From NCBI GenBank assembly GCA_021734345.1, contig JAIPJC010000015.1, forward strand, positions 1 to 40,478: DNA of 40,478 nucleotides, in the 5' to 3' direction. Shown piece after piece: positions 5,505 through 16,176 of this stretch. The notes under the pieces are model-generated. The model was not told the DNA's origin, made no database searches, and was given only the letters and a program-made list of their open reading frames with translations. Position 1 is the first letter of the stretch. Every line of letters starts with the position of its first letter. Origin of the DNA: Kiritimatiellales bacterium. Its GTDB lineage: Bacteria > Verrucomicrobiota > Kiritimatiellia > Kiritimatiellales > Pontiellaceae. Position numbers and translations under genes: made by a program.

Positions 5505-5534
5505 TTTACAAACATACACGCATGTTTGTATATA
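5505..5534 (+). promoter_or_regulatory. Promoter and AcrR-like operator of the efflux operon
   Basis: A 24-bp perfect inverted repeat (half-sites TACAAACAT and ATGTTTGTA at 5507-5515 and 5522-5530, 6-bp spacer) closely resembles the operator known for E. coli AcrR. It overlaps a plausible sigma-70 promoter, TTTACA (5505-5510) and TATATA (5529-5534) with 18-bp spacing. The tetR-type gene starts 29 bp downstream, so autorepression of the whole efflux operon is expected. Confidence 0.75.
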
Positions 5535-5563
5535 CCTTCCTATTCTCAAAAGCGAGGTGCCAG

Positions 5564-6232
5564 ATGGCTCGAAAAACAAAAAAAGATGCGCTTGCGACGC
5601 GGGAAAGCGTACTGCTGGCGGCGTTGGATCTGTTTGGCGAAAAGGGTTATTCGCGGACAACCCTCAGTGATATTGCCAAACGCATCGGGATGACCCGCGG
5701 GGCGGTTTACTGGCATTTTGACAACAAACCGGCGCTGCTGGTGGCTTTGATTGAATATGTGCATGTACGCCGGGAACAGATGACCGGCATGCGGGTTCCT
5801 GACATCTTGATGCTGGATGACTTGCGCCGGGCCTTCATTGCGCACGCCCGCAACGTTGTCGAAGATTCCATCACGCGCAAGTTCGAGTTTTTCATGAACT
5901 TCCAAATGGAATGGTCCGAAGAGCTTTTGACGGAGACGCATAAACAGCTAAACGAAATCCGCCAGAGTCCCCTCGCGGAATTCAAACGCTGTTTCCAGAT
6001 TCCCGCAATCGCCGAACGGTTGCGTCCCGGCGTCGATTTGGATCAGCTGATTGTGACGCTGGCCTCGTTCTGGATGGGGTTATGCAAGATGTACCTAGGC
6101 CGTTGTCCGGGGCTCGACTTTGGCCACCGGACGGAAAGCAATCCCGAATTGCTCGGGGGCTTCGACCTGATCCATACCGTGGCCGCTGGATTTGATTTGA
6201 TTATGAGTGCGGTTTTAACAGAGGAGAATTGA
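5564..6232 (+). CDS. TetR/AcrR-family repressor of the efflux operon
   Basis: A 222-residue protein starting at ATG 5564 (MARKTKKDAL) behind GCGAGGTG. An in-frame ATG at 5522 lies inside the operator and was rejected. The N-terminal helix-turn-helix spans about 26-60 (GYSRTTLSDIAKRIGMTRGA then VYWHFDNKPALL), the TetR hallmark. The C-terminal helical domain is the ligand pocket and resembles AcrR/TtgR-type regulators (MEWSEELLTETHKQL region). It is the first gene of a three-gene operon, with its stop one base before the membrane fusion gene. It probably binds the palindrome at 5507-5530 and is released by pump substrates. Confidence 0.92.
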   Translation: MARKTKKDALATRESVLLAALDLFGEKGYSRTTLSDIAKRIGMTRGAVYWHFDNKPALLVALIEYVHVRREQMTGMRVPDILMLDDLRRAFIAHARNVVEDSITRKFEFFMNFQMEWSEELLTETHKQLNEIRQSPLAEFKRCFQIPAIAERLRPGVDLDQLIVTLASFWMGLCKMYLGRCPGLDFGHRTESNPELLGGFDLIHTVAAGFDLIMSAVLTEEN

Positions 6233-6233
6233 G

Positions 6234-7379
6234 ATGAGTAGCAAAGGAATTGGAGTCGTGGTCGCAGCGGTGGTGGTTTCGCTATTGGCGGGTTGGTTCG
6301 GCCGCGGATTGCTTGGCGGCGGAAAGGGCGGGATGCCGCCCATGATGGGGCCGGGGCAGATGCCGCCAGCGGCGGTGGCGGCCAAGGTGCTGAAGGAACA
6401 GTCGCTTCAACCGGTTTCCGAATACATTGCCAAGGTGGAGCCGGTGCAGGAAGTGATGGTCCGCACGGAGGTTCCGGGCTATGTCGCGCAGGTGCATTTT
6501 ACCGAAGGCGCCATGGTGAAGGAGGGCGATCTGCTCTTCACGATCGACCAGTCGCAGTACCGGGCTACGGTTGCGGTCCGCGAGGCGGACGTGACGCGGG
6601 CCAAGGCCGAGCTGGTGCGGGCGCAGAAATATTTGGATAGGCTGAAGACGGCGGACGAGCGCAGCGTGTCGCGGAACGACCTCGATACGGCGGAGAGCGA
6701 TCTGTTGCGCGCGGAAGCGGCCCTCAAGCAGACCGAAGCCAATTTGAATCTGGCGCAGATCGACTTGGACTATACGCAAATCCGCGCGCCTATCGGCGGC
6801 CGGATCGGCGCGGTCCAGATGACGAAGGGGAACTATGTGACCTCCGCTTCCGGCGAGCTGGCGCGCATTGTGCAAACCGACCCGATCCGCGTTGTGCTCT
6901 CGCTGACCGACCGCGAATACCTCACCTTCAAACAACAAGAGCAGGCCGGTACGACTGCGGTCTGGAATGCGCAAATCCGGTTGCCGAACGGCACGGTCCT
7001 GCCCACCATTGGAAAAATAGATTTCGCCGACAATGCCATGAATCCGGAAACCGGCACCATGGCCGTACGCTACCTGTTCGACAACCGCGACGGCCTGCTG
7101 GTGCCGGGCGGCTATGCCAAGGCCCTGCTCAGCAAACCGGAAGTTGAGATGGGGATCCGGATTCCGCAAAAGGCCGTGCTGGTCGACCAGCAGGGCGAGT
7201 ATGTGCTGACGGTCGACGAGGCCGGATTGGTTTCCATGGCGCGTATTGCCGTCGGTGCGCAGATTGATACGGATGTGATCGTCCTGTCCGGGCTAAAATC
7301 CGGCGACCGCATCATAGTGGATGGCATTCAAAAAGCGCATCCCGGGGCAACAGTCCAAGCGACCCTGCTGGAGGAATAA
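6234..7379 (+). CDS. RND efflux membrane fusion protein (AcrA/MexA type)
   Basis: A 381-residue periplasmic adaptor. ATG 6234 follows AGAGGAG. An N-terminal membrane or signal segment (about 5-27) leads to a Gly/Met/Pro-rich linker. Then come the split lipoyl domain (VPGYVAQVHFTEGAMVKEGD and IRAPIGGRIGAV), a coiled-coil hairpin between them (about 115-180), a beta-barrel domain, and the membrane-proximal domain ending IVDGIQKAHPGATVQ. There is no lipobox Cys, so it is anchored by its N-terminal helix rather than by lipid. It would link the inner-membrane pump to the outer-membrane channel, both encoded by the next gene three bases downstream. Confidence 0.95.
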   Translation: MSSKGIGVVVAAVVVSLLAGWFGRGLLGGGKGGMPPMMGPGQMPPAAVAAKVLKEQSLQPVSEYIAKVEPVQEVMVRTEVPGYVAQVHFTEGAMVKEGDLLFTIDQSQYRATVAVREADVTRAKAELVRAQKYLDRLKTADERSVSRNDLDTAESDLLRAEAALKQTEANLNLAQIDLDYTQIRAPIGGRIGAVQMTKGNYVTSASGELARIVQTDPIRVVLSLTDREYLTFKQQEQAGTTAVWNAQIRLPNGTVLPTIGKIDFADNAMNPETGTMAVRYLFDNRDGLLVPGGYAKALLSKPEVEMGIRIPQKAVLVDQQGEYVLTVDEAGLVSMARIAVGAQIDTDVIVLSGLKSGDRIIVDGIQKAHPGATVQATLLEE

Positions 7380-7382
7380 AAA

Positions 7383-10300
7383 ATGATTTCACGCGTATTT
7401 ATAGAGCGCCCGCGGTTGGCGGGCGTGGTTTCGATCGTGCTGATGCTGGCGGGGATCCTCGCGATTTTCTCGCTGCCGATCGCGCAGTATCCACAGGTGA
7501 CGCCTCCGCAGGTTACGGTGAGCACCTCGTACCCCGGCGCCAGTGCGGAAGTGCTGGCCGATACGGTGGCCGGGCCGATCGAGGATGCGGTGAACGGCGT
7601 CGACAACATGATCTACATGTCCTCCACATCGGACAATTCCGGGTCATACCAGCTCACGGTTACGTTCGAAGTGGGAACCGATCCCGACATTGCCCAGGTG
7701 CAGGTGCAAAACCGCGTTGCCCAGGCCCAGCCGCTACTGCCAACCGAAGTCGCCCAGCAGGGGGTGATGGTCCAGACGGAATCGTCGGACATGCTGGGAT
7801 TCGTGATGATCCGCTCGCCCAACGGCGGGCGCGACGAGCTTTTCCTGAGCGACTATGCCTACAAGATCGTCAAACCGGCGGTGGAGCGGATTCCCGGAGT
7901 CAGCCGGGCGCAGGTCTATGGCCCGAAATACAGCATGCGCATCTGGATGGATGCCGACCGCCTCTCCGCGATGGGGATCAGTTCCGACGACGTGGTTTCC
8001 GCCATCCGGCAACAGAATATCCAAGCCTCGGTTGGTTCGATCGGCAGCACGCCTGGCACGGGTTCGGGACAACTCGCCTACACGTTGCAGGCGCAAGGCC
8101 GTCTGAATGATCCGGCCGACTTCGAGAACATCATTGTACGCACCGGCGCGGATGGCGCGGTTGTTTTCCTCAAAGACATTGGCCGTGTCGAAAAGGGCGC
8201 GGACAACTATCTGTTCCATGCGAAGTACAATGGGGAAACCGCGGTGGCAATCGGCGTCAGCCGTTCTTCTGGTTCCAATGCGCTCGAAACGATGAACGCC
8301 TTGCGCGCCGAGCTGGCTACGCTCGGCGGACAATTCCCATCGGATATGGAATGCATCCTGCCGTACGATGCCACGAACTTTGTGCGCTCCAGCATCAACG
8401 AGATCGTGCTGACACTCCTGCTCACGGTGCTGCTGGTCGTTGTGGTCTGCTACATCTTTCTGCAGGACTGGCGCGCCACCTTGATTCCGGCGTTGACCAT
8501 TCCGGTGTCGCTTTGCGCGACCTTCGCGGTGCTGATGCTCTTCGGCTACAGCATCAACACGCTCACGCTGTTCGGGCTGGTGCTGGCCATCGGACTGGTG
8601 GTGGACGACGCCATCGTGGTGGTCGAGCGGGTTCTCCACCTGATGGAACACGAACACCTGGACCACAAGGCCGCAACCATCAAGGCCATGGAGCAGGTCA
8701 GCAGCGCGGTCATCGCCACGACGCTGGTGCTGCTCGCCATCTTTGTGCCGATCGGCTTTGTGGGCGGAATCACCGGCAAGATCTACCAGCAGTTTGCCGT
8801 CTCGATTTCCGCCGCCGTGCTTTTTTCAACCGTGAACGCGCTGACGCTGAGCCCGGCGCTGTGCGCCACCATGCTTCAGGTCATCAAGCCCAAGCAGCAC
8901 GGGCCGTTGCGCTGGTTCAATTCCGGGCTGGGCCGTATTCGCGGGCGGTATGTTTCCGGCTCGACCCGCCTGGCCCGCCACCGGTTCCTGACGTTGTTCG
9001 TTCTCGCCGCCGTCATCGGCGGGACCTGCCTGCTGGTTTCGATGAGCTCGACGTCCTTTCTGCCGGATGAAGACCAGGGCGTAATCTTCGGCGCGATCCA
9101 GCTACCGGAGGGGGCGACCCTTTCCCGGACAGAACAGGTTTTCCACGACGCCATCACGCCGCTGAAGGATGAACCGGGCGTCGCCTATGTGGTGGAAGTC
9201 ACCGGGTTTAGCATGATGGGCGGATCCGGGGAAAACGTGGGATTTTTCCTGTTCGGTCTCGATAGCTGGGAGGAGCGCCAGACGCCGGAGTTGCAAATCG
9301 GCGCCATTCAGCAAAATCTGCAGGCGCGGCTTTCCGCCGTGCCCGGCGCACAGCTCAACCTGTTCACGCCTCCCGCCATCATGGGCCTCGGCGTCAGCGG
9401 CGGGATGGATATCCGCCTGCTGGCCGTCGACGACAACGACCCGCAGAAACTGGATGCGGTGCTCAGGAATTTTGTAATGCAGCTTAACATGGCGCCGGAA
9501 ATCATGTTCGCGTTCAGCGGATACGCCGCCGATACGCCGCATCTCTTTCTCGATGTCGACCGGGTCAAGGCCGCCCTGATGAAGGTCGAAGTCGGCGATA
9601 TATTTGCCGCGTTGCAGAACTATTTCGGCTCGCGCTACGTCAACGACGTCAATTTCGATGGCCAGGTCAACCGGGTCATGGTGCAGGCCGACTGGGGTTT
9701 TCGCAACCAGGTCGCCGATATCAAGCGGCTCTACGTGAAAAGCCGAACCGGCGCCATGGTTCCGCTGGGCAGTGTGCTTGATGTCCACCCGGCACTGGCC
9801 CCGCGTTCGATCGACCGCTACAACAAATTCTCCTCCGCCGCCATAACGGCCATGGCGCTGCCGTTCATCAGCAGCGGAGACGCCATGGAAAAAGTCTCGG
9901 CGCTGGCGGATAAAAACCTGCCGGAAGGCTACACGTTCGACTGGTCCAGCCTCAGCTACCAGGAAGCCAAGGCGAGCGGCGGTTCGGTCATGCTGGTCAT
10001 CATGGCGCTGGTCTTCGGCTATCTCTTCCTCGTCGCCCAGTACGAGAGTTGGACGATTCCGCTGCCGGTGATCTTCTCCACTTCGGTGGCGGCGCTCGGG
10101 GCGCTGCTGGGGCTCTTCTTGCTCCACATGTCGCTCAGTGTCTATGCGCAGCTTGGCCTCATTCTGCTGATCGGCCTCTCCAGCAAGAACGCCATTCTGA
10201 TTGTCGAATTCTCGAAAACCCGGCATGAAGAAGGCCTTTCGGTGATCGATGCGGCCGCCGATGGGGCCGGCCAGCGTTTCCGCGCGGTTTTGATGACGGC

Positions 10301-11888
10301 CTTCACCTTCATCCTCGGCGTGATGCCGATGGTCTTCGCCTCCGGGGCTGGGGCCGCCGCCCGCCGTGCGATCGGCGCGACCGTCTTCTGGGGCATGATG
10401 GCCGCGACGTTCTTCGGTATTGTTCTGGTGCCTGCGCTCTATGTGCTGTTCCAGACCCTGCGTGCGAAGGGCCATCGAATCCGGGCCGGGAAGGCGGGAC
10501 TTCACCTGTTGCTGCTCCTGCTGGTGCCGATGTTCATGAACGGCTGCATGTCCGTCGGGCCGGACTACGCCGAACCGGACTGGAAGGACACGGGCATCAA
10601 ACCCGACGCCAGCCTGGATGCGCAAACGCTGGGTCAATGGTGGAATACGCTGAACGATCCCCAACTGGTCGAGTTGGTCAACGAAGCGCTCCAAAACAAT
10701 CCAAACCTGAAGTCGTCGGTGGCGGCCGTGCGCGGTGCCCGCGCCCGGCTCGGGATGGCGCGCTCCGCCTACGGACCGCAAATCGATGCGGCGGGTGGCT
10801 ACGCGCGCCAGAAAACAAGCGATGCAACCACGGGTGGTCTTGGCGGCGAGCGGGACCTCTACAGCGGCGGATTCGATGCTTCGTGGGAAATCGACCTGTT
10901 TGGCGGGACGCGCCGTTCCGTCGAAGCGGCCGTTGCCGCACTTGAAGCGCAAGAGGCCGACTATGCCGACGTGCGGGTTTCGCTGGCCGCCGAAACGGCG
11001 CAAAGCTATGTCCAGCTGCGCACCTACCAGAAGCAGCTTGAAGTGGCAAACGCCAATCTCGCGCTTCAGCAGCAGACGCTGGAGCTGTTGCAGTCGCGTT
11101 TCGCGGCCGGGCTGAGCGACGACCTGGCCGTGCAGCAGGCGCGGTACAATCTCGAAGGCACCCGCGCCACCATCCCGGTGTTTGAAACGCAGGTTGAGCG
11201 TAGCCTTAATGCACTGGCGGTGCTCACCGGCCAGATGCCCGGCTCGCTGCACGAGCGGCTAGGCGCGCCCTCTGCCATCCCGGCGCCCGGAGTCCGGACG
11301 GTTACGGGCATTCCTGCCGATTCGTTGCGCCGCCGCCCCGACGTGCGCCGGTCCGAAAGGCAACTGGCGGAGCAGACGGCGCGCATTGGCGTGGCCACTG
11401 CGGATCTCTATCCCAGGTTTACCCTGAACGGATCGATCGGCATCGAGTCGCTCAGCGCTTCCACGTTCGGGGATTCCGGAACCGATTTCTACAGCATTGG
11501 TCCAGGGGTGAGTTGGGCGCTGTTCCACTCCGGTTCCATCCGCAACCGCATCAAGGCGCAGGAGGCGGTTCAGGAGCAGTATTTGGCGGCGTATGAAAAC
11601 ACCGTGCTGCAGGCGGTGCAGGAAACGCGGGATGCATTGGCGGCCTTTGCCAACGAGCAGCGTCGACTCGAGTCGCTCAGTTCGGCAGTCGAAGCGGCCC
11701 GGACGGCGTCGGAACGCGCGGGCGACCAATACAAGAACGGCCTGGTCAACTTCGATACCGTGCTCAACGCGCAGCGCGCCTTGCTCTCGTACGAAAGCCA
11801 GCTGGCGCAGAGTCGCGGCGGCATAACGCAGGATCTCATCCAGCTCTACAAGGCGTTGGGCGGCGGCTGGCAGGAGACGGTGGAGTAG
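7383..11888 (+). CDS. Fused RND efflux pump and outer-membrane channel lipoprotein (AcrB-OprM type)
   Basis: One uninterrupted frame of 1501 codons. Residues 1 to about 1035 are a complete HAE1-type RND transporter. It has the N-terminal [14 protein letters not shown]4 proton-relay pair D408/D409 ([12 protein letters not shown]), TM10 Lys935 ([13 protein letters not shown]), and porter and docking domains of normal length. Residues 1055-1501 are a complete OprM/TolC-type channel. The junction reads as a basic stretch ([13 protein letters not shown]), a Leu-rich core ([11 protein letters not shown]) and a lipobox MNGC ending at Cys1055, i.e. a lipoprotein signal peptide embedded in the chain. 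RND C-termini are cytoplasmic, so this segment has the right polarity to act as TM13 and then be cut by signal peptidase II. Normally these are two genes; no stop or obvious internal start lies between them. Confidence 0.93.
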
Positions 11889-12708: not shown

Positions 12709-15700
12709 GTGAAATGTTCGTTCGTGCTTCGATCTGTTGGTTTTCTTTTCGCTGCTTGCGGATGGGTGGCCGCACAGCAGTTCCGCATCACGGACTACGA
12801 CGGGTCAACCGTCACCATCGAGTATCCCCCGTCATTCGCGGGCGCGTACCTCTTTTTCCAGCAAAACACCAATCTGATGTCAGGCGAATGGGAGGCGGTC
12901 GACTATTCCCAGATTGCCTTGGTGGAGGGTGCCGAAGTTCTGTATTCGCCATCTTCGGAAACAACCGGAGGTTCAACCAATCAGACCGAAGTTCCATACC
13001 AGATCACGCCCGAGTTCATTGCCGCAGTAGCCAACGGGGAAATCACCAACTCCGAATGGGTGGCGGCCAGTTCAATCACTGCGCCTTCCGATGGCGACAG
13101 CGGTTTCTACCGGTACGAGGCGATTTCATTCGTGGACACGGATGGGGATGGCGTTGACAACGTCAGTGAATACGGAGCCGGAACCGATCCCTATGAAAGC
13201 GACGCCCCACCGGTAACCCTCCCGCTGGACGACGGCGATCCGCAAGCCGTTCCCGGATCGGTGGACAGTGCGCCGGGCGACTGGAACACGCCGCCGCAGA
13301 CCGTCTATCGCGCAACCATCGGGTTGCATGGTGCGATCAACGCCCGCATTTTGGCGATGGACGGCACCAACGGAACCTTCACGGCGGACTCGACGGTCGA
13401 GGAACTGGGGGCATGGATCGAAGCCCAGTGCGGAAATTGGGTCGCCCCCGCCGAGGAGGAAGTGTATCCGACGGTGGACGGCGGGCGGTTCTTCCAGACG
13501 GAAACCAATGGCTTTGCGTGGGCGGGGAAGGAAAACATATATGCCTTGGCCTTCCACCCCTACGACGGTTCGGAGCAGTTCGCGAACCATTTGGTGAAGG
13601 GGGATCCAAGCGATCCGACGGGGCTGGCCTCCATCGGCGGCACAAATCCGGTGCTGGTCAATGCCTCCAACCCGTGGACGAAGGAAAAGATCGAAGCCTG
13701 CCTTCCGCATCTAGTTACGGTTTCCTGCCGGTTGCAGAAATTGAATGGGGGAGTATTCGATCCGACCGACACCACCGCCATGGCCCAGGGCGAAACGCAG
13801 ACCAACTTCGATCCGCTGGAACCCGTGGATGAAATCAAGATTGCGACCTGCTTTATCCAGTTTTTCTGGAGCTTCAGCGGAGTCACGGGATGGACCATTC
13901 CGCCTACCGGGATCTTCGGCTACTCGCGCAACGGGAAGTTCACTTTTCTTGATCGCCTGACCGAACATGGCTTCGGATCCACCACGCATCGCGGATATGT
14001 GGGATTGAAGCCTCCCTACGACTGGACGATTAATGGGTTTTGGGATAAATATTCTCTTCAGAACGCATTGCCCGCCGGCCTGCTCACCAATGCGATCAGC
14101 CAGACCTTCACCCGCACCGATGGCGAAAGCGCCTGGCTTTTGGCGGAAGATACGAACTATGGCACCCAGCGAACCGCGCCCGGCTTATACGATCATCCGC
14201 CCTACAACCCGCCCAACTCGGGCGTCGTCCTTTCCGGCTTCCAAACCTACGCCGCCGAGGTGCTCAGCACCTTCGACCCGCCGCCCATCACGGAAGCGGC
14301 AACCTTGGCCATGGACATGGATCGCGACGGATCGATCACCGAGACCAACGACTGGGATCGCGTCGATGCATACCACCCCTTCCGGTTCTGGGTGAACGAG
14401 GACGGCAACAATTCCGTCTATCCCGAAGCCGCCCTGGAGGATTTCTTCCCGGCCCAGATCATGTGGCGGGAAGGCGCGGGCACACCCAACATCACCTTCA
14501 AGCTTTCCGCCAACGTGAATCTGGACTATGTTCCGACCGCAATGACGACGAACGATACCGATGCCTACCTGACGGAACTCGATGTGGCCGGAACGCTGGC
14601 CGCCAATATCGGATCCCTGTCGAGCGGCACGCAGACTTCGGAGACGTTCAACGAAAACGACATCGTGCTGTTGGCCGCATCCGCCGCCGATACGTCCGCC
14701 GAAATTTATGTCCACATCCTCGAAAACGGTTCCGAGATCGCGGTTGCGACCAACCACTTCTCGTTCAGTCCGGTAGAGGAGATGTACCGCATCGAAAACC
14801 TGCGTTCCGGCGGAACCAGCTCCACCGACGAGCCAGCCAACTGGCCGGACAACCTGACCAACGGCAAGGATTTCGTCTTTGTCCACGGCTACAACGTCGA
14901 CGAAGCTGCCGGCCACGAGTGGAACAAAACCATCTTCAAGCGCCTATGGCACTCCGGCTCCAACGCCAAGTACCACGCTATTTTGTGGGACGGAACACCG
15001 CCCGGCGATCCATTGCACCTAGGGCCGTACTACTACCACAACGCGGTCATCAACGCTTTTGCCACGGCACCGGATTTTGCCACCTACCTAAATGGACTGA
15101 ACGAACCCGTGGTGATGGCGCATAGCCTTGGCAACATGCTAACCAGTTCGGCCATCGTTGACCATGATGCAGCCGTGAGCCAATACTATGCGCTGGATGC
15201 CGCAGTGGCTCTTGAAGCGTATGGGGATGCATCCCCGACAAACGCAAGTGCAATGATCGCTGACAACCTGTTCGACCGGATGGATGCCGGATTATTCAGT
15301 GACCTGATCCCATTCTGGTCTGACATCAACGAATATGTGTGGCAGGACTATCCCTTTGAATCTTGGGCCAGCGAATGGTACCGGATATTCGATCCATCCG
15401 ACGCCCGTTCAAAACTGACGTGGCGACACCGCTTCCTCGATATCCAGCAAAGAACCGATGTGTTCAATTTCTATTCCAGCACAGAAGAGGTTCTCCGGGT
15501 CAATGAAGGGTTTCTTCTCTTTGTTCAGGCCTACAACAAAAACTATGCATGGCAGGTTCAGGAGCACTTCAAGGGGCGGCTGAACGACAACCTTATCACC
15601 GGAATCTACGATGGGCTGGGCGGTGCCGCCAGCGAATACTGCGGATGGGGCTTCACCGAGGAGGCAAGTTCTTCCCATATTTTGGATACATGGGGCGTGG

Positions 15701-16176
15701 TCAAGTGGGCACCCGCCCGTCCCCGCCACCTGCACGAAAAATTGGCGCAGGAAAATCCGGACAGGGAACAGAACCTCCAAGTCCTTGCCACCGATCCCCT
15801 GTTCCGCCCCAATCCCGAAGAACTGTTCGGTGCGAGCGCGGAAGCATTTTCAGCCGGAACGGTAGCAGCGCAAGGTGGGATGCTCGACTACAACGTATCC
15901 AACGCATCCTATCCCATCGGCAATGTTCCCATGCGCGATTGGCTTCTCGCCAAGGCGTTTCCGTCCCGGACAAGGCCAATGGGTTCGACCATCAATTCTC
16001 AGCTAGCCTGGCTCAGCGGAAACTTCAACATGTCCGCGTTGTACATGACGAACCCCTCAGATTGGCCGCACAAAGAAGATAGTGTTGCCAAATGGTGGCA
16101 CAGCGACATCAAGGATGTTCCATACGCACATAGCCATAAGCTTTTCGACAAAATAACCGCTCAGGAAAGGAACTAA
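12709..16176 (+). CDS. Large secreted alpha/beta hydrolase with Ca-binding repeats
   Basis: An 1155-residue protein starting at GTG 12709 with AAGGGGG upstream. A signal peptide (SVGFLFAACGWVAAQQ) directs export. Residues 143-167 form a thrombospondin type 3-like Ca-binding loop (DTDGDGVDNVSEYGAGTDP), and 536-550 an EF-hand or dockerin-like loop (DMDRDGSITETNDWD). The C-terminal third holds an alpha/beta hydrolase core: oxyanion-side FVHGYN (His726) and nucleophile elbow MAHSLGN with Ser806, so a lipase or esterase activity is likely. The catalytic Asp and His cannot be fixed by eye. The next gene follows after one base. Part of the C-terminus (ATDPLFRPNPEELFGASAEA) recurs as a remnant at 17130-17245, so this belongs to a duplicated family. 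Confidence 0.8.
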   Translation: MKCSFVLRSVGFLFAACGWVAAQQFRITDYDGSTVTIEYPPSFAGAYLFFQQNTNLMSGEWEAVDYSQIALVEGAEVLYSPSSETTGGSTNQTEVPYQITPEFIAAVANGEITNSEWVAASSITAPSDGDSGFYRYEAISFVDTDGDGVDNVSEYGAGTDPYESDAPPVTLPLDDGDPQAVPGSVDSAPGDWNTPPQTVYRATIGLHGAINARILAMDGTNGTFTADSTVEELGAWIEAQCGNWVAPAEEEVYPTVDGGRFFQTETNGFAWAGKENIYALAFHPYDGSEQFANHLVKGDPSDPTGLASIGGTNPVLVNASNPWTKEKIEACLPHLVTVSCRLQKLNGGVFDPTDTTAMAQGETQTNFDPLEPVDEIKIATCFIQFFWSFSGVTGWTIPPTGIFGYSRNGKFTFLDRLTEHGFGSTTHRGYVGLKPPYDWTINGFWDKYSLQNALPAGLLTNAISQTFTRTDGESAWLLAEDTNYGTQRTAPGLYDHPPYNPPNSGVVLSGFQTYAAEVLSTFDPPPITEAATLAMDMDRDGSITETNDWDRVDAYHPFRFWVNEDGNNSVYPEAALEDFFPAQIMWREGAGTPNITFKLSANVNLDYVPTAMTTNDTDAYLTELDVAGTLAANIGSLSSGTQTSETFNENDIVLLAASAADTSAEIYVHILENGSEIAVATNHFSFSPVEEMYRIENLRSGGTSSTDEPANWPDNLTNGKDFVFVHGYNVDEAAGHEWNKTIFKRLWHSGSNAKYHAILWDGTPPGDPLHLGPYYYHNAVINAFATAPDFATYLNGLNEPVVMAHSLGNMLTSSAIVDHDAAVSQYYALDAAVALEAYGDASPTNASAMIADNLFDRMDAGLFSDLIPFWSDINEYVWQDYPFESWASEWYRIFDPSDARSKLTWRHRFLDIQQRTDVFNFYSSTEEVLRVNEGFLLFVQAYNKNYAWQVQEHFKGRLNDNLITGIYDGLGGAASEYCGWGFTEEASSSHILDTWGVVKWAPARPRHLHEKLAQENPDREQNLQVLATDPLFRPNPEELFGASAEAFSAGTVAAQGGMLDYNVSNASYPIGNVPMRDWLLAKAFPSRTRPMGSTINSQLAWLSGNFNMSALYMTNPSDWPHKEDSVAKWWHSDIKDVPYAHSHKLFDKITAQERN

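What the first reader, a model, noticed from the sequence alone, without database searches (positions are those of the whole stretch)
7383..11888. RND pump and outer-membrane channel encoded as one polyprotein with an internal lipobox
The sequence shows one open frame of 1501 codons with a full AcrB-like pump (D408, D409, K935 all present) followed by a full OprM-like channel. The junction is a textbook lipoprotein signal peptide (basic stretch, Leu core, MNGC with Cys1055). RND C-termini are known to be cytoplasmic, so this segment has the polarity to insert as a thirteenth helix. Signal peptidase II cleavage would then free a lipidated channel. I infer a 1:1 polyprotein that matures by proteolysis; alternatively it stays fused and forms an unusual fixed pump.
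Basis: partly seen in the sequence, partly recalled or inferred. Interest (0 to 1): 0.75.

Follow-up and report, generated by a model that had tools for sequence, protein, structure and literature searches.

The report
Efflux pump and channel as polyprotein
One gene makes a drug-efflux pump and its outer-membrane channel as a single chain, joined by the channel's own signal peptide that probably gets cut, so the cell makes both parts in equal numbers; similar fusions seem to have arisen several times in related bacteria.

Summary
Window 7383-11888 is one open frame (1501 codons): a complete AcrB-type RND pump (residues 2-1024; D408, D409, K935), then a complete NodT-type channel (1056-1495), in a TetR-adaptor-pump::channel operon. 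It is not an assembly error: 21 frames from relatives keep the fusion, including a single-contig 3.88-Mb genome whose size fits Tichowtungia aerotolerans; the window is probably a Pontiella (inference). In these 22 frames the lipobox Gly-Cys is invariant. The window's own box (MNGC) is not quite textbook: Asn at -2. No Shine-Dalgarno-linked internal start was seen at its junction. On a tree of 105 pumps the fused ones form six separate lineages; all 30 fusion frames found keep a signal-peptide-like joint (26 Cys boxes, 4 A-x-A-like sites), while 14 of 14 unfused pump tails lack the hydrophobic core. Nearby unfused operons have lipoprotein channels, two with an ATGA stop/start overlap, so the fusion probably arose by losing a stop. 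Best reading: a polyprotein cut by signal peptidase II (LspA and Lgt genes present), freeing a lipidated channel and leaving the pump a thirteenth helix. Cleavage is inferred, not shown. Six unfused pumps nest inside the fused clade: probably later loss of the channel half.

The parts
5522..6232 (+). TetR-family regulator, MtrR/AcrR-like, first gene of the operon (start codon not certain: no SD-like sequence before 5522)
   Evidence: PF00440 E 5.7e-18; MtrR/AcrR models match below cut-off; TetR-type gene upstream in 6 of 8 fused relatives' loci; start context
6234..7379 (+). RND periplasmic adaptor (membrane fusion protein), MexE-like
   Evidence: TIGR01730 248 bits, cut-off 94.9; 3-base gap to the fusion gene; SD AGGAG upstream
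7370..7375 (+). Shine-Dalgarno GGAGGA of the fusion gene
7383..11888 (+). RND::OMF polyprotein gene, 1501 codons
7386..10454 (+). AcrB-type pump domain, residues 2-1024, with D408, D409, K935
   Evidence: PF00873 at 7386-10454; residues
10443..10502 (+). residues 1021-1040: pump tail that would serve as basic n-region of the embedded signal peptide
   Evidence: net charge +3 between pump match end and core; basic tails of the same kind end most unfused pumps printed
10503..10535 (+). residues 1041-1051: hydrophobic core, probable thirteenth membrane helix
   Evidence: best 12-residue Kyte-Doolittle mean 2.56; separate helix 1038-1051 in the AlphaFold model, low confidence
10536..10547 (+). lipobox MNGC, Cys1055 at 10545-10547; probable signal peptidase II site
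   Evidence: Gly1054 and Cys1055 invariant in 22 of 22
10545..11885 (+). mature outer-membrane channel (NodT/OprN type), residues 1055-1501
   Evidence: TIGR01845; Foldseek matches to OprN 5iuy E 4.6e-23 and OprM 1wp1 E 3.7e-18

Best explanation
The gene encodes a pump-channel polyprotein. Translation starts once, at 7383. The AcrB-type pump inserts with its C-terminus in the cytoplasm (established for RND pumps). The following hydrophobic stretch then inserts as a thirteenth helix with its lipobox at the periplasmic face. Lgt puts a lipid on Cys1055 and signal peptidase II (LspA) cuts before it. This frees a lipidated OprN-like channel for transport to the outer membrane, and leaves the pump carrying the channel's former signal peptide as a permanent extra helix. 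Pump and channel come out 1:1, as the 3:6:3 assembly needs; the adaptor, needed twice, stays a separate gene. Shown: one open frame, conservation, motifs, operon, separate fused lineages, the processing enzymes' genes. Inferred: insertion, lipidation, cleavage, the benefit of 1:1 supply.
For: Intact frame with both complete domains. 22 window-type fusion frames, Gly-Cys invariant in 22; mean pairwise identity of lipobox (0.70) and post-Cys stretch (0.74) is well above that of the linker beyond (0.28). All 30 fusion frames found have a hydrophobic core (best 12-residue mean 2.31-3.11) after a tail of net charge 0 to +6, then a Cys box (26) or an A-x-A-like site (4, assigned by eye); 14 of 14 unfused pump tails have no such core (best means -2.35 to 0.77). 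The fused pumps form six lineages on the tree, 8 changes, at least 7 forced by starred branches; five of the six have an unfused sister group. Five unfused outgroup channels printed all begin as lipoproteins, four with C-x-x-V-G-P-[DN]-Y as in the fusion; two overlap the pump stop by ATGA (L024, L044). No SD-like 4-mer before the in-frame starts of the window junction, while adaptor and pump have strong SDs. LspA and Lgt are in the genome. In OprM the acylated N-terminus reaches the outer membrane from the equatorial domain (PMC8277102 section 58), so an uncut tether of about 25-38 residues would have to bridge most of the periplasm; a poor fit (inference).
Against: No protein-level evidence. 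The window's lipobox has Asn at -2, off the usual pattern. The AlphaFold model is of low confidence over the junction (ten-residue blocks of pLDDT 32-61 for residues 1005-1084). SD-like 4-mers precede only 6 of the 11 window ORF starts I looked at, so their absence at the junction is not decisive (starts not curated). In another fusion (L158) an ATG preceded by AGGA could start the channel on its own, so not every open frame need be a polyprotein. Some relatives lack the channel half and keep the pump, so the 1:1 link is not essential. The profile A1 used includes the junction and may favour hits that keep it.
Confidence: 0.85

Rival explanations
1. The chain is not cut: the hydrophobic stretch is a plain anchor helix and pump and channel stay covalently joined as a fixed two-membrane machine.
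For: One open frame; a separate helix that could serve as anchor (low confidence); the window's lipobox deviates at -2.
Against: A cleavage motif of one of two kinds is present in all 30 fusion frames found, over six lineages; Gly-Cys invariant in 22 of 22; in OprM the N-terminus belongs at the outer membrane, too far for a 25-38 residue tether in the standard assembly (inference, pump height recalled).
Confidence: 0.08
2. The channel is made from its own internal start and the missing stop codon is incidental.
For: In-frame GTG at residues 1016 and 1021 and ATGs at 1005, 1006, 1050 and 1052 exist; in L158 an internal ATG has AGGA upstream; SD-like 4-mers are lacking at 5 of 11 window ORF starts looked at.
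Against: No SD-like 4-mer before those starts; only 1 of 30 fusion junctions has one, and 5 of 30 have no ATG, GTG or TTG at all between the last residues of the pump match and the core. A start at 1050 or 1052 would lack a signal peptide.
Confidence: 0.05
3. A sequencing or assembly error hides a stop codon or frameshift.
For: The window comes from a draft assembly of 176 contigs.
Against: The same fusion stands in many other assemblies, among them single-contig genomes G032 (3,882,676 bases) and G224 (4,432,027 bases).
Confidence: 0.01

Closest known systems
MexEF-OprN / MexAB-OprM tripartite pumps
   Same: Same three parts, order adaptor-pump-channel, lipoprotein channel; fold matches OprN and OprM; pump family TIGR00915 over cut-off; adaptor resembles MexE
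   Different: There pump and channel are separate genes; as an example opened here, record H45 has two genes 12 bases apart
FbcH cytochrome b / c1 polyprotein of Bradyrhizobium japonicum (recalled; two searches found no paper on it in the library)
   Same: Membrane protein and exported partner made as one chain and separated at the partner's internal signal peptide (recalled)
   Different: Signal peptidase I, respiratory complex, both parts at the inner membrane (recalled); here a lipobox and a product bound for the outer membrane
Fused dimeric adaptors such as DSY0927; SecDF fused in Thermus
   Same: Natural gene fusions within tripartite or RND systems (PMC4446572 passage; PMC8277102 passage)
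   Different: Not pump with channel; the passages speak of no cleavage between the parts

Membership tests
RND HAE1 (AcrB) pumps | Full-length ACR_tran domain and TIGR00915 over cut-off | tested here: met
   PF00873 2-1024; TIGR00915 1110.9 bits against 940.35; NF000282 just below its cut-off, 1227.3 against 1250
RND HAE1 (AcrB) pumps | Proton-relay residues Asp-Asp and Lys | tested here: met
   D408, D409, K935
RND HAE1 (AcrB) pumps | Drug/proton antiport | not testable with these tools
   Needs an assay
NodT/OprM outer-membrane factors | TIGR01845 over cut-off, two OEP repeats | tested here: met
   373.4 against 210.05 bits; PF02321 two stretches
NodT/OprM outer-membrane factors | OMF fold | tested here: met
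   Foldseek to OprN 5iuy E 4.6e-23, OprM 1wp1 E 3.7e-18; model mean pLDDT 71.6
NodT/OprM outer-membrane factors | Own gene and start codon | tested here: not met
   No stop before and no SD-linked start seen at the junction
Signal peptidase II substrates | Basic n-region, hydrophobic core, lipobox with Cys | tested here: met
   +3, KD 2.56, FMNGC, but -2 Asn is off the pattern; Cys in 22 of 22. No signal-peptide predictor was at hand
Signal peptidase II substrates | Lgt and LspA in the genome | tested here: met
   PF01252 E 3.3e-38; PF01790 E 3.2e-71
Signal peptidase II substrates | Cleavage and lipidation observed | not testable with these tools
   Needs blots or mass spectrometry

The most novel reading that the evidence does not exclude
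In the window's phylum, pump-channel polyproteins matured by the general signal peptidases are a repeatedly evolved way to supply efflux parts in equal numbers: the 'signal peptide' removed from the channel is itself a working 13-helix pump, and either peptidase (II in three lineages, I in three) can serve.
Probability: 0.75. Interest if true: 0.65.

Novelty: new variant of a known kind. Interest (0 to 1): 0.55.

Why it matters
It would be a polyprotein whose maturation protease is the general signal peptidase and whose leaving group is a complete transporter. It fixes pump:channel supply at 1:1, gives the pump an extra helix, and makes the processing of one gene testable with a single known inhibitor. 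Separate lineages allow a comparative test: a cleavage motif is kept in every fusion found here, which suggests that separating the two parts is required for function.

Tried and rejected
Frameshift or assembly error: rejected by conservation in other assemblies. Independent start: judged unlikely for the window, left open for L158. Long open frame as proof of fusion: misleading; G134 and G287 have 1495- and 1253-aa frames over the channel that merely run across the pump in another frame, and the pump frames of G356 and G265 (1084 aa each) held no channel. L195 and L196 looked like N-terminal additions to a pump, but Pfam found nothing there. On plasmids (45 rows listed, of 4855 and 4837 records) rows that name both parts list them as separate features; others name only the pump or nothing; only H45 was opened and it is two genes. 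Fusions of CusA-type pumps with channels in Bacteroidota are recalled from databases and were not tested.

One search read some minus-strand loci on the wrong strand; one search replaced it. The tree is of the pump half only; the large one is a quick tree with long branches flagged and weak forks at its root. No signal-peptide predictor was available; motifs were judged by pattern and by eye.

Papers: ten searches. Seven aimed at RND-channel fusions (10, 15, 20, 44, 53, 55, 58; some returned nothing); from titles and abstract starts I saw no report of one. The library lacks most subscription journals. I saw passages of PMC8277102 (of which only the first 300,000 characters are held), PMC4446572 and PMC10880615, and part 1 of 2 of section 58 of PMC8277102.

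Full report
What is there. Window 7383-11888 (+) is a single frame of 1501 codons, ATG to TAG. Residues 2-1024 are a complete AcrB-type RND pump (PF00873; TIGR00915 1110.9 bits, cut-off 940.35) and residues 1056-1495 a complete outer-membrane channel of the NodT family (TIGR01845 373.4 bits, cut-off 210.05; two PF02321 stretches). D408, D409 and K935 are present. Upstream lie a TetR-type regulator (5522-6232) and a periplasmic adaptor (6234-7379) in the same direction; 3 bases separate the adaptor stop from the fusion start. Adaptor and fusion gene have strong Shine-Dalgarno sequences.

Whose genome. The window is contig 14 of a draft genome, 84.8% complete. I infer that the window is a Pontiella and that G032 is T. 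aerotolerans; no tool named them.

The fusion is conserved. One search covered 58 genomes, the window's own included. Eleven others show a window-type match over both halves on an uninterrupted frame (L005-L015). Further ones are cut by contig ends (L016, L022, L025, L023) or, in G042 (L026), interrupted in the pump half; L023's frame leaves the family after about residue 1447. With loci from the wider searches there are 22 window-type fusion frames, the window included. In the eight fused relatives whose neighbourhood was listed, regulator and adaptor stand upstream in six (L150-L153, L156, L161); L157 shows the adaptor only and L154 neither.

The junction. In 22 of 22 window-type frames Gly1054 and Cys1055 are invariant, as are Leu1046 and Gly-Pro at 1059-1060; mean pairwise identity is 0.80 in the last pump helix, 0.43 in the basic tail, 0.49 in the core, 0.70 in the lipobox, 0.74 just after it, 0.28 in the following linker and 0.49-0.54 in the first part of the channel. 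The window's box is F-M-N-G-C; Asn at -2 is unusual. With a PROSITE-like pattern (recalled) 24 of the 26 Cys-type junctions pass; the window and L204, both with Asn, do not. The residue after Cys is never Asp in the 22, as expected for an outer-membrane lipoprotein by the E. coli rule (recalled). AlphaFold gives two separate helices, 1006-1029 and 1038-1051, then an unordered stretch and the channel, with pLDDT blocks of 32-61 over residues 1005-1084. Foldseek's named best matches are OprN 5iuy (E 4.6e-23) and OprM 1wp1 (E 3.7e-18).

Six lineages, each with a signal-peptide-like joint. Searching 387 genomes of the phylum with an unrelated fusion and with the profile of the window's channel, and checking frames, gave 30 fusion frames among the loci fetched. 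All 30 have a hydrophobic core (12-residue mean 2.31-3.11) after a tail of net charge 0 to +6. Twenty-six end in a Cys box; four (L158, L160, L165, L194) end in A-x-A-like sites (LSA|Q, ARA|Q, VDA|A, ARA|Q; assigned by eye). As a control, the tails of 14 of 14 unfused relatives of the window's pump have no such core (best mean -2.35 to 0.77). On a tree of 105 pump domains the 24 fused ones need 8 changes, at least 7 forced by starred branches: the window clade, L226, L227/L228/L230, L158, L160/L165 and L194 are separate. Four of these have an unfused sister group at support 100 (L226, L158, L160/L165, L194); the window clade has unfused L024, L225, L231 as sister (support 97/96 and 96/94); L227/L228/L230 has none close. 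The lists were cut, so the number is a lower bound; the tree is a quick one with long branches flagged; and the tree counts changes, not their direction.

How it arose and was lost. The nearest unfused operons have short, mostly basic pump tails. Channels of L034, L035, L040 and L044 start as lipoproteins with C-x-x-V-G-P-[DN]-Y, as in the fusion; L024's starts as a lipoprotein without that motif. In L044 and L024 a channel start overlaps the pump stop as ATGA; in L034, L035 and L040 the gap is 106, 8 and 254 bases. Loss of such a stop in frame would give a junction like the window's (inference). A careful tree of 29 pumps puts six unfused pumps inside the fused clade; holding the 16 fused ones together is rejected (lnL 109.6 lower, p-AU 1e-65; the quick tree had already shown this). 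The tree alone allows one gain and two losses or several gains; since the junctions are alike I take it as one fusion with later loss of the channel half. The six unfused pumps stop within the basic tail, and no channel of this type follows. G008 carries both a fused and an unfused copy.

Separate translation. Between the last residues of the pump match and the core the window has one candidate, GTG at codon 1021, without an SD-like 4-mer; ATGs at 1050 and 1052 lie inside the signal peptide, those at 1005 and 1006 inside the last pump helix, none with such a 4-mer. Of 30 junctions, 5 have no ATG, GTG or TTG in that stretch and only 1 (L158) has an SD-like 4-mer. SD-like 4-mers stand before 6 of the 11 window ORF starts I looked at, so SD is used but not universal. 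The channel most likely depends on the pump's start in the window; L158 may be an exception.

Mechanism. RND C-termini are cytoplasmic (established), so tail and core are placed to insert as a thirteenth helix with the lipobox outside. Lgt and LspA genes are present. In OprM the lipidated N-terminus runs from the equatorial domain to the outer membrane (PMC8277102 section 58). From Cys1055 to the first helices of the channel (1080 and 1093 in the model) are only about 25 to 38 residues, some five fewer in many relatives, and the equatorial belt lies about halfway up a 100-A barrel above the pump; an uncut tether would hardly reach (inference). I therefore favour cleavage by signal peptidase II. 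The 3:6:3 model dominates for these pumps (PMC4446572 passage), so pump and channel, but not the adaptor, are needed 1:1, which fits which two genes are fused.

Novelty. I saw no report of pump-channel fusions in the searches listed under Tried and rejected; the library lacks most subscription journals, and such domain pairs probably exist unremarked in protein databases (recalled). The parts are ordinary; what seems new is the repeated joining of an inner-membrane pump to an outer-membrane channel through a kept signal peptide.

Noticed in passing
L160:7478-11944 (G001:C117) and L165 (G319): An unrelated RND pump fused to a TolC-type channel, with an embedded signal peptidase I-like site; two genomes share it.
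   Followed up: yes
L158:5226-9653 (G044): Another fusion type; an internal ATG with AGGA upstream could start the channel separately, so it may be two products in one frame.
   Followed up: partly
L017-L021, L149: Pump orthologues 71-73% identical to the window's that end in the basic tail with no channel of this type downstream, nested inside the fused clade: probably secondary loss of the channel half.
   Followed up: yes
L012 and L149 (both G008): One genome carries both a fused and an unfused copy of this pump on different contigs.
   Followed up: partly
L144-L149: Upstream of the unfused pump operon lies a second RND gene with its own divergent channel, which might serve both pumps.
   Followed up: no
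L023 (G039:C334): The fusion frame leaves the family near residue 1447 and ends in an unrelated tail; the contig is short, so a sequencing slip or a real break is possible.
   Followed up: no
window 12709-16176: 1155-aa open frame with only a weak alpha/beta-hydrolase match just under Pfam's cut-off (25.9 against 26.3 bits).
   Followed up: no
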